A DNA stretch of 28,703 nt, from positions 1 through 28,703 of IMG/VR virus record IMGVR_UViG_3300027513_000186; one strand, 5' to 3'. This DNA comes from a virus. The position numbers and the translations under genes were made by a program. Each line of letters starts with the position of its first letter. Position 1 is the stretch's first letter. Positions 2,195 through 5,395 of this stretch are shown one piece after another. The notes beneath the pieces are model-generated. The model ran no database searches, was not told the DNA's origin, and was given only the letters and a program-made list of their open reading frames with translations.

Positions 2195-2718
2195 GACTCG
2201 TCCTCATCGAGGTCCACATTGGACTCGGGCTGTGCCTCGTCGTCTTTCCACAGGCCCGTCTCACGCACGCACGCATCCCAGGTCACCTCGTGCGGAGGCC
2301 GACCGTCGGCGAGCTGGTCCGCGGCCCACACTGCGAAGTGGCCCATCTCGGTCTGCTCGCGCGCTGCGGTGTCGAACGCCCGCTGCGCGTCGGCCTGAGC
2401 ACGGCCAGCCACGGCGACTTTGAACTTCACCGGCGCGTGCTGGTTCTCGATGATGTTGCCGCCGTCGTCAGCGAGTAGCCGATGAGGCTCGTAGGCGTAG
2501 TGCTCCAGCCCTGGGATCACGATCGATCCCTCCGGGGCGGTCTGCCCGGGCCTCTTGCGGCGGGCGACCACTCGCTGCGCGAGCCCGAGCCGGGCCTTGT
2601 CCGGGTCGAAGTCGATTTGCTCGGCGAGGAGCGTCACGAGGCTCGATTCGACGATGCTGCCGTCGGGGTTGCGGTCGGCGTGGTCGAATGCGTAGCCGTA
2701 CGCCTGGTCACTCTTCAT
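2191..2718 (-). CDS. Phage early protein of unknown function, 175 aa
   Basis: The ATG at 2718 has a good ribosome site (AAGGGGA about eight bases upstream) and overlaps the end of the HTH regulator gene by 11 bases. The protein is soluble and charged. It has an N-terminal stretch AYGYAFDHADRNPDG, a basic patch VARRKRPGQ (about 51-59), a central VKFKVAVAGRAQADAQRAF and a very acidic tail (last 15 residues, Asp/Glu-rich). No catalytic motif is recognisable. Position directly after a ParB/HTH-like protein in a coupled operon suggests a DNA-transaction or regulatory role, but that is inference only. Confidence 0.8.
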   Translation of the reverse strand: MKSDQAYGYAFDHADRNPDGSIVESSLVTLLAEQIDFDPDKARLGLAQRVVARRKRPGQTAPEGSIVIPGLEHYAYEPHRLLADDGGNIIENQHAPVKFKVAVAGRAQADAQRAFDTAAREQTEMGHFAVWAADQLADGRPPHEVTWDACVRETGLWKDDEAQPESNVDLDEDES

Positions 2719-3484
2719 GGTCGAGTTCCCCTTCGAGCAGGTCGATTGCCTTGCGCAGCTCGCGGATCATGTCGGCGGTGACGAGGCCTCGTTCGCCCAG
2801 CCGGGATCCGCTGACGACGGTGACGACGGCGGCCAGGACGGTGGTGACGATGGTCTTGGATTCGCGTCGGGCGGCTTCGATGGTCTGGATGCGCTGGACT
2901 TCCGCCTCGTGCTGGCGGCGTTCTTCGGGATCCCACTTCGGTGGCTTCGGGCGCTCGGGCTCCGCAGCAGGCTCGGCTGCTGGTGGTAAAGCTTGACCGT
3001 TCAATGTGGACGGTGCCGGCGGTGCTGACACGGGCCGGCTGGCCGGGTAGGTCTTGCCGTCGGCGCCCCTGACCGCCTCTGGAAGGTGGCTACTTTTAGC
3101 CACCTGTTCAAGGTCGTTCTCGACGGTCCGTTTGCTGACACCGAGGCTCGCGGCGATGCCCCGCTGGCTCATACCCTGCGCGCGCAGGTCCTTCGCGGCA
3201 TCGCGCCGGTCGTCCCGCGTGAGTCCGCGCAGCGCCTGGCTGAACTCGGCCTCCACGTACGCGAACCACGACGGGTAGCCCAGGGCTGCCCAGTCCCGCT
3301 GCGCGTAGGCGTCGGCGATGTCCTGCCGCATCTGCGTGTACGAGGTGAGCCCGGCCCGGATCCGGGTGGCCCGGGCGCGGGCGAGGTCGGCGGTGACCTG
3401 GGGCAGGTCGGCGTCGCGGTCGATGAGGTCGGCGGGGCTGGTGCCGAGCAGGTCGGGGATGGCGGACACGGTGGTGGCGATCAT
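2708..3484 (-). CDS. HTH DNA-binding regulator, ParB-like helix-turn-helix type, 258 aa
   Basis: The start at ATG 3484 overlaps the stop of the small membrane gene (ATGA). The frame stays open further upstream, but that part is Arg-rich shadow sequence. Residues about 85-125 contain a clear helix-turn-helix (AKDLRAQGMSQRGIAASLG, then VSKRTVENDL), preceded by a helical region (about 27-90). After the HTH comes GADGKTYPASRP, a signature often found behind the HTH of ParB-like and replication/regulatory proteins of actinobacterial plasmids and phages. A Pro/Ala linker (150-185) and a charged helical C-terminus (about 186-258) follow, the latter probably a dimerisation coiled coil. The ParB N-terminal nuclease/CTPase motifs are not visible, so this is a DNA-binding regulator or replication-associated factor rather than a full ParB. 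Confidence 0.8.
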   Translation of the reverse strand: MIATTVSAIPDLLGTSPADLIDRDADLPQVTADLARARATRIRAGLTSYTQMRQDIADAYAQRDWAALGYPSWFAYVEAEFSQALRGLTRDDRRDAAKDLRAQGMSQRGIAASLGVSKRTVENDLEQVAKSSHLPEAVRGADGKTYPASRPVSAPPAPSTLNGQALPPAAEPAAEPERPKPPKWDPEERRQHEAEVQRIQTIEAARRESKTIVTTVLAAVVTVVSGSRLGERGLVTADMIRELRKAIDLLEGELDHEE

Positions 3485-3660
3485 CGGGTCACGACCGCGA
3501 CGAGGCCGAGCAGCCCGGAGCTGATCATGACGCCGGAGCCGACCGCGACCAGGACGAGGCAGCCGGAGCTCTTCGACCCGCCGCCACCGCGCCGACCTCC
3601 GCCGCCACGGACCTTCGGGCCGCGACCGCCGCCACCGCGCCTTCCCGGCGGGCGGCTCAT
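3481..3660 (-). CDS. Small basic glycine-rich single-span membrane protein, 59 aa
   Basis: Both ends fix this short gene. ATG 3660 overlaps the upstream stop (ATGA, 3660-3657), and its TGA overlaps the next start (3484-3481). Residues 1-30 are Arg/Gly-rich (RRGGGGRGPKVRGGGGRRGG). Residues about 32-57 form one hydrophobic segment (CLVLVAVGSGVMISSGLLGL). The positive-inside rule predicts the basic N-terminus in the cytoplasm. Function unknown. Being second in the early operon next to the Cro-like gene, it could act at the membrane early in infection (for example in exclusion), but nothing in the sequence proves this. Confidence 0.65.
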   Translation of the reverse strand: MSRPPGRRGGGGRGPKVRGGGGRRGGGGSKSSGCLVLVAVGSGVMISSGLLGLVAVVTR

Positions 3661-3863
3661 GACGCGACCCGGGTCTCGGTAACGATGCGGTCGGCGAACC
3701 AGAGTCGCAGGGTCTCCCAGCTGACCTTGACCTTGGTCCGCTCGGACAGGTCGTCGGCGATCGCCCGCCACGACTCCGTCGCTCGCCGTGCAGCGACGTG
3801 CTCGGCAAGCGGCTCACCGAGGCGGTCCTCGATCAGCTGGTAGAGAGGTGACGGTTGTGACAT
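3657..3863 (-). CDS. Small HTH protein in the Cro position, 68 aa
   Basis: The ATG at 3863 lies at the edge of the intergenic region shared with the divergent repressor. There is no obvious Shine-Dalgarno, so it may be leaderless or start very close to its promoter. Residues about 31-57 (SWRAIADDLSERTKVKVSWE, then TLRLWF) form a helix-turn-helix, and the whole protein is little more than that. Its position as first gene of the minus-strand early operon, divergent from an XRE repressor and next to an integrase, is where Cro is found in temperate actinobacteriophages. It probably represses the repressor promoter or modulates early transcription. An excisionase/RDF function is the main alternative for a protein of this size. 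Confidence 0.75.
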   Translation of the reverse strand: MSQPSPLYQLIEDRLGEPLAEHVAARRATESWRAIADDLSERTKVKVSWETLRLWFADRIVTETRVAS

Positions 3864-3975
3864 GGCCCGAAGTTTGTCAGGGACAAGCTAGTTGCGCAAG
3901 TGGCCACGTTAACTTCCTGTGACACAATCTGTTTGGCATTGCCAACAGGTTTGTCGATCAGGCAGGATCTACCCC
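3864..3975. promoter_or_regulatory. Divergent control region between the Cro-like gene and the repressor, with candidate operators
   Basis: This 112-base stretch must contain promoters for both directions. GTTTGTC occurs twice in direct orientation (3872-3878 and 3949-3955). The first copy is half of an imperfect 7-bp dyad with GACAAGC (3882-3888, one G:T pair). CTGTTTGGCATTGCCAACAG (3929-3948) is a near-palindrome with one bulged T. TTGCGCAA (3892-3899) and GTGGCCAC (3900-3907) are adjacent perfect palindromes. The stretch is AT-richer than its neighbours. I could not fix convincing -35/-10 hexamers. The dyads are good candidates for repressor and Cro binding sites. Confidence 0.6.
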
Positions 3976-4356
3976 ATGACAGAGATTGATGAGCGCGAGG
4001 GCCGACTGGTCCGGGCGATCCCGGTCGACAGCTTCGGCAACCGACTAATGCTGGTCCGCGCACACCTGGGGCATCTCACCGTCAAAGACGCCGCCGAACG
4101 CTGCGGCCTCAACTACGGCAGCTGGTCCAACTGGGAACACGGGAAGCTACCGCGCGACATCCTCGACGTCGCCGAAGCGGTCGCTGAGGGCCTGAGCATC
4201 GACCGGGACTGGCTCCTGCATGGCGGGCCGTTGGCCGAAACCGCGCGACGTCAGCGGCGAGAGGTTAGGTCACCCTACTCGCCATCCACGAGCGGACCGG
4301 GTCGCCACCTGCGCCGACCGCGGCGCCTTGACCGCCATGAGCGAATTCCCGCATAG
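3976..4356 (+). CDS. Phage immunity repressor, XRE-family HTH, 126 aa
   Basis: ATG 3976 (MTEIDEREGRL) is preferred over an earlier in-frame ATG near 3919, because the upstream codons cover the operator-like dyads. Residues about 20-80 form the DNA-binding domain: FGNRLMLVRAHLGHLTVKDA, then AERCGLNYGSWSNWEHGK, an XRE-type helix-turn-helix, ending with RDWLLHGGPLA. This pattern is characteristic of short repressors of temperate actinobacteriophages. There is no peptidase/LexA-like C-terminal domain. Residues about 88-126 are Arg/Pro/Ser-rich, low complexity, and end in Ala. The integrase gene follows on the same strand. In BPs-type phages the repressor has this size and place, and its C-terminal part is removed by integration at an internal attP. 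That would explain the odd tail here, but it is inference. Confidence 0.85.
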   Translation: MTEIDEREGRLVRAIPVDSFGNRLMLVRAHLGHLTVKDAAERCGLNYGSWSNWEHGKLPRDILDVAEAVAEGLSIDRDWLLHGGPLAETARRQRREVRSPYSPSTSGPGRHLRRPRRLDRHERIPA

Positions 4357-4465
4357 CTTCGAAGGACTTCGAACCCGTTCGTCCAATGCTGACCGTCCGT
4401 GTCGCTGTGATCACAGGCCGTTTAGCTGTAAACCGTCTATGCAGAAAGCGAGTTGCATCTTCGCC
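4357..4465. promoter_or_regulatory. Repressor-integrase junction with clustered dyads; candidate attP and Int/RDF binding region
   Basis: Four symmetric elements fall within 109 bases. CTTCGAAG (4357-4364) is followed ten bases on by a second CTTCGAA (4367-4373). CTGTGATCACAG (4405-4416) is a perfect 12-bp palindrome. GTTTA-GCTG-TAAAC (4420-4433) is an inverted repeat with a four-base centre. ATGCA (4439-4443) and TGCAT (4454-4458) are inverted around 10 bases. Read on the minus strand, 4364-4377 contains GGGTTCGAAGTCC, which resembles a tRNA T-arm but has one base too many. Tyrosine integrases use inverted core sites and repeated arm sites, so this stretch and the adjoining repressor 3' end are the best attP candidates. 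The core itself cannot be defined without the host site. Confidence 0.4.
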
Positions 4466-5350
4466 ATGTCTGATCTCATCGCCCGACACCTCGCAGCATT
4501 GCGAGCCAAGGGCCTATCCGAGAACACCGTCCATGACCGCAAGCGCCTCCTCAAGGCGCTCGACCGCGACCTCCCCCACGGCGTCGACCAGGCCGCCACC
4601 GAAGAGCTACAGGAATGGCTGGGCCGCGAGGGCCTCGCCGCGAAGACCCGCGAGACGTACTGGTGTCACATCGTGGGTTTCTACCGCTGGGCCGCTCGGG
4701 GTCGCACTCCTCGCCTGGACTGGGATCCCAGCGAGGAACTCGATCGGCCCGTTCCCGGCCGTCATCATCCCCGCGTCGCCGCCGACGACCAACTGCACCA
4801 GTGCCTGCTGAGACTCGGCCACCCCGTGCGCCTCGCCGTCGTCCTCGCCGCCGGCCTGGGCATGCGCTGCGCCGAGATCTCCCGAGTGGCCCGTGAGCAC
4901 TTCGACGGGCACCGGGTCCTCATCCGCGGCAAGGGTGACAAGGAACGCAGTGTCCCGGTCCCGGCCGACGTGTGGGAGGAGGTTGAGCCGCTCCCGCCAG
5001 GGCTGCTCGTGGTGAACCGGTGGGGGCAGGCGATGTCCGCTGACGCCGTTGGGCAGGCATGTGCGAGTGCGTTGGACGCTGTAGGCTTCCCGACTCTGAC
5101 GATCCACTGGTTCCGGGGTGCCTACGCGACGAGGCTCCGCCGATCGGGGGTTGACCTGTCGGTCATCAGCCGTCTGCTCGGCCACTCGTCGGTCGCCACC
5201 ACCCAGCGGTACCTCGAACTCACGGAGGCCGACTTGGATCAAGCCATCGCCCACATGCCGACGCTGATGCAGTCGAGCTGGCGGGCACCCCGTCCCGTGG
5301 AGCCCGAGCCGGCCAGTAACCGGCTCGGACCCACCGCCGAGGCGGCGTAA
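4466..5350 (+). CDS. int: Tyrosine recombinase (phage integrase), 294 aa
   Basis: It catalyses site-specific integration and excision of the phage. The start chosen is ATG 4466 (MSDLIARHLAALRAKGLSEN), where the SAM-like N-terminal DNA-binding domain begins. An in-frame ATG at 4439 is possible, and the frame is open further upstream across the repressor end. Residues about 1-90 are the core-binding domain (TVHDRKRLLKAL, then TRETYWCHIVGFYRWA). The catalytic domain follows with all expected residues: Arg134 (GLGMRCAEIS), Lys156/159 (RGKGDKERSVPV), His214-x-x-Arg217 (IHWFRG), His240 (LLGHSSVATTQRY) and nucleophile Tyr249. About 45 residues extend past the Tyr and end in Glu-Ala-Ala, a terminus of the kind read by ClpXP. 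The gene is co-oriented with and downstream of the repressor, and the hairpin at 5362-5395 ends the unit. Confidence 0.93.
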   Translation: MSDLIARHLAALRAKGLSENTVHDRKRLLKALDRDLPHGVDQAATEELQEWLGREGLAAKTRETYWCHIVGFYRWAARGRTPRLDWDPSEELDRPVPGRHHPRVAADDQLHQCLLRLGHPVRLAVVLAAGLGMRCAEISRVAREHFDGHRVLIRGKGDKERSVPVPADVWEEVEPLPPGLLVVNRWGQAMSADAVGQACASALDAVGFPTLTIHWFRGAYATRLRRSGVDLSVISRLLGHSSVATTQRYLELTEADLDQAIAHMPTLMQSSWRAPRPVEPEPASNRLGPTAEAA

Positions 5351-5361
5351 CCCAGCATGAC

Positions 5362-5395
5362 GCCAACCCGCCGGTGCTGTCACCGGCGGGTTGGC
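5362..5395. terminator. 15-bp perfect hairpin between convergent genes; probable bidirectional terminator
   Basis: GCCAACCCGCCGGTG (5362-5376) and its exact reverse complement (5381-5395) flank a four-base loop, CTGT. It lies 12 bases after the integrase stop and 39 bases beyond the end of the minus-strand gene at 5435. It has no U-run on either strand, as is common in high-GC actinobacteria. The symmetry and convergent context make it a likely terminator for both directions. Confidence 0.8.

What the first reader, a model, noticed from the sequence alone, without database searches (positions are those of the whole stretch)
3657..5350. Compact switch that fits integration-dependent immunity (Rep-Int with a divergent Cro)
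Seen: a 126-aa XRE repressor is followed on the same strand by a complete tyrosine integrase, with a 68-aa HTH gene divergent from it. The repressor has an Arg/Pro-rich tail without a domain and ends in Pro-Ala. The integrase ends in Glu-Ala-Ala, beyond its catalytic Tyr. Known: in mycobacteriophages such as BPs and Brujita, attP lies inside the repressor gene. The viral repressor carries a C-terminal degradation tag that integration removes, so only integrated phage makes stable repressor, and Int is also tag-regulated. Inference: the same logic operates here, in a phage whose structural genes look unlike a typical mycobacteriophage.
Basis: partly seen in the sequence, partly recalled or inferred. 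Interest (0 to 1): 0.68.

Follow-up and report, generated by a model that had tools for sequence, protein, structure and literature searches.

The report
Phage repressor probably switched by integration
An uncultivated actinobacterial virus carries a compact repressor-integrase switch from a family whose other members make a working repressor only after the virus has inserted into the host chromosome; it very likely works the same way, but its own insertion site was not found.

Summary
A 126-aa HTH repressor (3976-4356, +) is followed 109 nt later by a complete tyrosine integrase, whose real start is ATG 4466 (294 aa). A 68-aa HTH-like gene (3657-3863, -) is divergent. Two uncultivated phage contigs share the layout (repressor 62/57%, integrase 54/59% identical), the Arg-rich repressor tail, its R-I/V-P/T-A end and the integrase EAA end.

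The repressor belongs to the family that includes Brujita gp34 and Mycobacterium abscessus and Gordonia repressors, in which attP lies inside the repressor gene. In four of five chromosomal relatives the gene ends in a tRNA gene or antisense-tRNA-like sequence; none has an integrase next to it. Two TTGNCNNNGNCAA operator-like sites sit in the cro-repressor gap.

Not shown is this phage's own attP or attB. Its repressor gene holds no tRNA 3' end, unlike Brujita, Reyja, YungMoney and EricDab, and searches of sampled actinobacterial genomes found no attB. A codon-atypical conserved site, TTAGGN4CCTA, at codons 97-101 is the best attP candidate.

Verdict: integration-dependent immunity is the best explanation (about 0.7) and a new member of a known kind. 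The repressor end is not an ssrA-like -AA tag.

The parts
3657..3863 (-). divergent 68-aa HTH-like (Cro/excise position) gene
   Evidence: Translation; conserved in place and sequence in L003 (3682-3885) and L004 (3666-3872); no PHROG/Pfam hit at 1e-3
3874..3886 (.). operator-like palindrome TTGTCAGGGACAA in the cro-rep gap
   Evidence: TTGNCNNNGNCAA occurs 3 times in the 28.7-kb window (0.31 expected), 2 of them in this 112-bp gap; same motif in the cro-rep gaps of L003 and L004
3933..3945 (.). operator-like palindrome TTGGCATTGCCAA
3976..4356 (+). immunity repressor, 126 aa, viral (full-length) form
   Evidence: HTH_19/HTH_31, phrog_2328; homologues L003, L004 at 62/57%
4240..4353 (+). repressor tail (codons 89-126), Arg/Pro-rich, predicted disordered, ends HERIPA; proposed to be lost on integration
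   Evidence: pLDDT under 50 for 89-126 except residue 114, against about 75-83 for the HTH body; Arg pattern and end conserved while codons differ
4264..4278 (.). candidate attP core or integrase site GTTAGGTCACCCTAC inside the repressor tail (codons 97-101)
   Evidence: NTTAGGN4CCTAY conserved in all three phages, with the rare AGG Arg codon (14 of 298 Arg codons) at the same aligned Arg; same depth in the gene as the annotated truncation of prophiGD36-2 (codon 99 of 127). Inference only
4391..4421 (.). conserved non-coding block in the rep-int gap (GACCGTCCGTGTCGCTGTGATCACAGGCCG); arm-type integrase site, int control site or alternative attP
   Evidence: alignment of three gaps, GTGTCG...T.AC.G.C.G invariant
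4466..5350 (+). tyrosine integrase, 294 aa
   Evidence: catalytic Arg134, His214, Arg217, His240, Tyr249
5213..5347 (+). integrase segment beyond the catalytic Tyr; its last residues (A/T)EAA are conserved in all three phages (possible -AA degradation tag)
5363..5394 (.). perfect 14-bp inverted repeat between convergent int and late genes, terminator-like but without a T run
   Evidence: read from the sequence; the terminator scan found no T-tailed stem

Best explanation
This is the lysis-lysogeny switch of a temperate actinobacterial siphophage that uses integration-dependent immunity. In the virus, repressor and integrase are made together from a promoter facing away from the divergent cro-like gene, and the repressor carries a disordered 38-residue Arg-rich tail that makes it unstable or inactive. 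The integrase, itself probably short-lived through its -EAA end, recombines an attP inside the last third of the repressor gene with the host site. That removes the tail, moves int to the other prophage end, and leaves a shorter, active repressor that binds the TTGNCNNNGNCAA operators and shuts the early genes. Shown: gene layout, homology to the integration-dependent repressor family, conservation and predicted disorder of the tail, operator-like sites. Inferred: attP position (best guess codons 97-101), truncation, instability of the long form, co-transcription.
For: Same order and orientation as Brujita (repressor gp34 70 nt before the integrase, divergent excisionase) and as phiT45-1, Reyja, Clown, YungMoney and EricDab. 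The repressor HTH is homologous to theirs. The nearest annotated prophage records (prophiGD36-2, GD05-2, 62-3, 108-1) have the repressor at the prophage end with a note that attP lies inside it. prophiGD36-2 is cut at codon 99 of 127; the window has 126 codons. Chromosomal homologues end in tRNA-Arg(CCG) (L152), tRNA-Lys(TTT) (L208, L209) or antisense-tRNA-like sequence (L206), and none of these loci holds an integrase. Viral homologues Brujita, Reyja, YungMoney and EricDab carry an antisense tRNA T-arm inside the repressor gene at codons 91-121. The tail is conserved as protein, not DNA (2 of 12 conserved columns share codons). Mechanism in BPs: gp33 of 136 residues is degraded and gp33 of 103 residues is stable (PMC4557955). 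M. abscessus groups without an -AA repressor tag are known (PMC8092301).
Against: attP and attB were not found. A 221-bp query in 297 actinomycete genomes, a 22-mer with 3 mismatches in 247, and a 65-bp query in 98 gave only chance-like matches. No tRNA T-arm lies in the repressor gene or in the gap to int. The best-conserved non-coding block lies in the rep-int gap, outside the repressor gene. The repressor ends -PA, not -AA. No integrated copy of this three-member clade was found. The host is unknown.
Confidence: 0.7

Rival explanations
1. Conventional switch: attP lies in the 109-nt rep-int gap (or downstream of int), integration leaves the repressor intact, and the Arg-rich tail is a permanent part of the protein, for example for oligomerisation or DNA contact.
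For: The most conserved non-coding block, GTGTCG...T.AC.G.C.G, lies in the gap at 4391-4421. The tail is conserved at protein level. No attB match to the tail was found.
Against: The prophage records recovered with homologous repressors place attP inside the gene, and four of five chromosomal relatives run into a tRNA gene or antisense-tRNA-like sequence. The gap block could equally be arm-type integrase sites or an int control element. The gap has no tRNA-like core either.
Confidence: 0.2
2. Integration does change the repressor's C-terminus, but the lost tail is not a degradation signal: the long form is stable and differs in activity (for example the Arg-rich tail adds nucleic-acid binding or protein contacts that favour the lytic state).
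For: The tail is strongly basic and ends in -PA/-TA rather than -AA. BPs gp33 of 136 residues, when stabilised, was reported to raise Prep activity modestly, suggesting the tail can act on transcription (PMC4557955).
Against: In BPs the tail destabilises the protein. The basic end followed by hydrophobic and small residues could itself be a ClpX-type signal (from general knowledge of MuA-like ClpX motifs, not tested).
Confidence: 0.1

Closest known systems
Brujita gp34/gp33 (Mycobacterium phage, studied example of integration-dependent immunity)
   Same: homologous HTH repressor of 128 aa, integrase 70 nt downstream on the same strand, divergent small DNA-binding gene
   Different: Brujita carries an antisense tRNA T-arm inside the repressor gene (codon 91) and ends -HAA; the window has no tRNA sequence there and ends -IPA
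prophiGD36-2 / phiT45-1 repressors of M. abscessus (attP annotated inside the immunity repressor of prophiGD36-2; repressors without -AA)
   Same: 43.8/42.5% identical HTH, viral forms of 127 and 129 aa against 126; GD36-2 ends ESERIAS, the window HERIPA; phiT45-1 also lacks a tRNA T-arm in the gene
   Different: tails do not align beyond the last few residues; the window's integrase is at most about 32% identical to any phage record; phiT45-1 int ends -TVT, not -AA
BPs gp33/gp32/gp34 cassette
   Same: proposed logic: long unstable viral form against short stable prophage form, rep and int from one promoter, divergent cro-like gene (PMC4557955)
   Different: reported BPs operator CGACATATGTCG, here TTGNCNNNGNCAA; sequence relation to BPs gp33 not tested (record not held)

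Membership tests
Integration-dependent immunity systems (Broussard et al. type) | repressor and tyrosine integrase adjacent and co-directional, small DNA-binding gene divergent | tested here: met
   conserved in three contigs
Integration-dependent immunity systems (Broussard et al. type) | attP common core lies inside the repressor coding sequence | tested here: inconclusive
   No host match found; met in homologous prophage records and chromosomal relatives
Integration-dependent immunity systems (Broussard et al. type) | prophage form of the repressor is shorter than the viral form | tested here: inconclusive
   No integrated copy of this clade is held; relatives GD36-2, L152, L206, L208 and L209 fit
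Integration-dependent immunity systems (Broussard et al. type) | viral repressor carries a C-terminal degradation tag (often -AA) | tested here: inconclusive
   Ends -IPA/-VPA/-ITA, not -AA; known members also lack -AA (PMC8092301); stability not testable here
Integration-dependent immunity systems (Broussard et al. type) | integrase with C-terminal -AA (in many, not all) | tested here: met
   AEAA/TEAA/AEAA in three integrases
Actinophage HTH repressor family that includes Brujita gp34 | homologous HTH domain followed by a variable tail | tested here: met
Tyrosine recombinase (phage integrase) | Phage_integrase domain with R...H-x-x-R...H...Y | tested here: met
   PF00589 E 9e-16; residues invariant

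The most novel reading that the evidence does not exclude
An integration-dependent switch whose viral-form repressor is disabled not by an ssrA-like -AA tag but by a conserved Arg-rich tail ending R-[I/V]-[P/T]-A, with attP at a site that is not a tRNA gene: a different degradation signal, or a tail that changes the repressor's activity instead of its stability.
Probability: 0.25. Interest if true: 0.5.

Novelty: new member of a known kind. Interest (0 to 1): 0.34.

Why it matters
It extends integration-dependent immunity to an uncultivated actinophage clade with structural genes far from known phages, and supports the view that this repressor family as a whole depends on integration. The conserved non-AA tail in three phages offers a concrete candidate for the unidentified inactivation signal of the -AA-less M. 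abscessus systems.

Tried and rejected
(1) tRNA-derived attP at 4365-4375 (TTCGAACCCG, just after the repressor stop): rejected, because the base opposite the invariant T-stem G-C pair is wrong, ARAGORN finds no tRNA in the window, and the genome matches there fall in stretches without a tRNA. (2) tRNA-Leu anticodon reading of GTTAGGT: rejected, no T-arm follows in any of the three phages. (3) attB of the TTAGG site: a 22-mer with up to 3 mismatches in 247 genomes gave 2 chance-like hits; the reversed-pattern control also gave 2. (4) Finding integrated copies of the clade by integrase or repressor in viral and genome collections: two other viral contigs only; genome hits were distant integrases. 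(5) Long integrase start at 4220: rejected on comparison. (6) A shared terminal motif R-[IV]-x across all non-AA repressors: not general, prophi62-3 ends ...PAVASK. (7) The integrase model was too poor for structure searches (mean pLDDT 52). (8) BPs is not in the phage collection under the two accessions tried.

Full report
Observation. The window is an entire IMG/VR virus record of 28,703 bp classed linear; it is probably not the full phage genome. Structural genes (terminase, portal, major head protein, tape measure, endolysin) run leftwards. Between the late genes and the leftward early genes lies a rightward pair: a repressor, 3976-4356, 126 aa, and a tyrosine integrase ending at 5350. A 68-aa gene at 3657-3863 is divergent from them. 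The integrase ORF opens at 4220, but its real start is ATG 4466: the closest relatives start there and the upstream extension is not shared. All catalytic residues are present.

Relatives of the same clade. Two other uncultivated phage contigs carry the same three genes in the same order: IMGVR_UViG_3300005518_000010 (L003) and IMGVR_UViG_3300031949_000024 (L004). Repressors are 62 and 57% identical to the window's, integrases 54 and 59%. The repressor tails share an Arg pattern and the ends HERIPA / LERVPA / RDRITA; the integrases all end EAA. Within the tail, only 2 of 12 columns with a conserved residue use the same codon in all three, so selection acts on the protein. AlphaFold2 gives an ordered HTH body to about residue 88 and a disordered tail from 89 to 126 (shallow alignment, modest confidence).

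Control sites. TTGNCNNNGNCAA occurs three times in 28.7 kb against 0.31 expected; two copies lie in the 112-bp gap between the divergent genes. The same motif is in the corresponding gaps of L003 and L004. This fits a repressor that governs both divergent promoters, though binding is inferred.

The repressor family. tblastn against 50,697 phage records finds homologues in Gordonia, M. abscessus, Arthrobacter and others at 38-46% identity over the HTH. In prophage records (prophiGD36-2, GD05-2, 62-3) the repressor sits at the prophage end and the record says that attP lies inside it. In prophiGD36-2 the gene is split, 297 nt at one end and 87 nt at the other, the end that holds the integrase, giving a viral form of 127 aa cut at codon 99. 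Brujita gp34, whose system is experimentally known, falls in the same alignment and tree. Four viral members (Brujita, Reyja, YungMoney, EricDab) carry an antisense tRNA T-arm within the repressor gene at codons 91-121.

Independent check in chromosomes. A profile of the three repressors was searched in 395 genomes of the class and 351 of the family of Mycobacterium sp. SM1. Of five clear chromosomal homologues, L152 ends inside tRNA-Arg(CCG), L208 and L209 end inside tRNA-Lys(TTT), L206 ends in antisense-tRNA-like sequence (VGLEPTTCGLKVR), and L207 is short with no tRNA. None has an integrase in the 3-kb locus. A sixth hit, L210, is more distant. So repressors of this family, when integrated, usually run into a tRNA gene, which is what integration-dependent immunity predicts.

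What could not be shown. The window phage's own attP is unknown. Unlike most relatives its gene holds no tRNA 3' end. phiT45-1 also has none, and shares with prophi62-3 a non-tRNA stretch (CAATACAGTTCTTACTCACGAGTA) at the point where prophi62-3 is cut. Three searches of sampled actinobacterial genomes found no attB, but only a small fraction of species was sampled, only the top candidates per genome were scored, and the host is unknown. By position and by conservation the best candidate is NTTAGGN4CCTAY at codons 97-101 (4264-4278): it is conserved in all three phages and keeps the rare AGG codon at one aligned Arg (14 of 298 Arg codons in nine window genes). A second conserved block in the rep-int gap (4391-4421) may be integrase arm sites, an int control element, or, in the rival reading, attP itself.

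Mechanism. Literature on BPs shows the logic: the 136-residue viral repressor is degraded through a C-terminal tag, while the 103-residue prophage form is stable and active (PMC4557955). In M. abscessus several groups have attP in the repressor but no -AA end, and are presumed to use other signals (PMC8092301). The window fits that second class: the integrase ends in -AA, the repressor does not. Calling the Arg-rich end a ClpX-type signal is an inference from general knowledge.

Verdict. Ordinary in kind, new in lineage. Integration-dependent immunity is the best explanation at about 0.7; a conventional switch with attP outside the gene remains possible at about 0.2.

Noticed in passing
window 3481-3660 (-): A 59-aa Gly/Arg-rich small protein with one hydrophobic segment (MSRPPGRRGGGGRGPKVRGGGG...) directly follows the cro-like gene; similar small proteins sit in the same place in L003 (from 3512) and L004 (3478-3669).
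   Followed up: partly
L003 4252-4376: The repressor tail region of L003 holds eight YTAGG/CCTAR boxes in about 125 bp, including the 8-bp inverted repeat CCTAACTG-CGC-CAGTTAGG, out of 19 in 8.3 kb: a cluster of possible binding sites mostly inside coding sequence.
   Followed up: partly
L193 3234-3257 region and the end of L215 (prophi62-3): phiT45-1 and prophi62-3 have quite different repressors but share a 24-bp stretch CAATACAGTTCTTACTCACGAGTA at the attP position, suggesting exchange of the att-int module between repressor types.
   Followed up: partly
L206 1387-1500 (-): A chromosomal repressor homologue ends in an antisense-tRNA-like peptide, but ARAGORN finds no intact tRNA there; possibly a decayed or altered tRNA at the junction.
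   Followed up: no
window 2708-3817 (-): A 369-aa ORF with a weak HTH_38/HTH_23 match overlaps the cro-like gene; its real start is probably further downstream.
   Followed up: no
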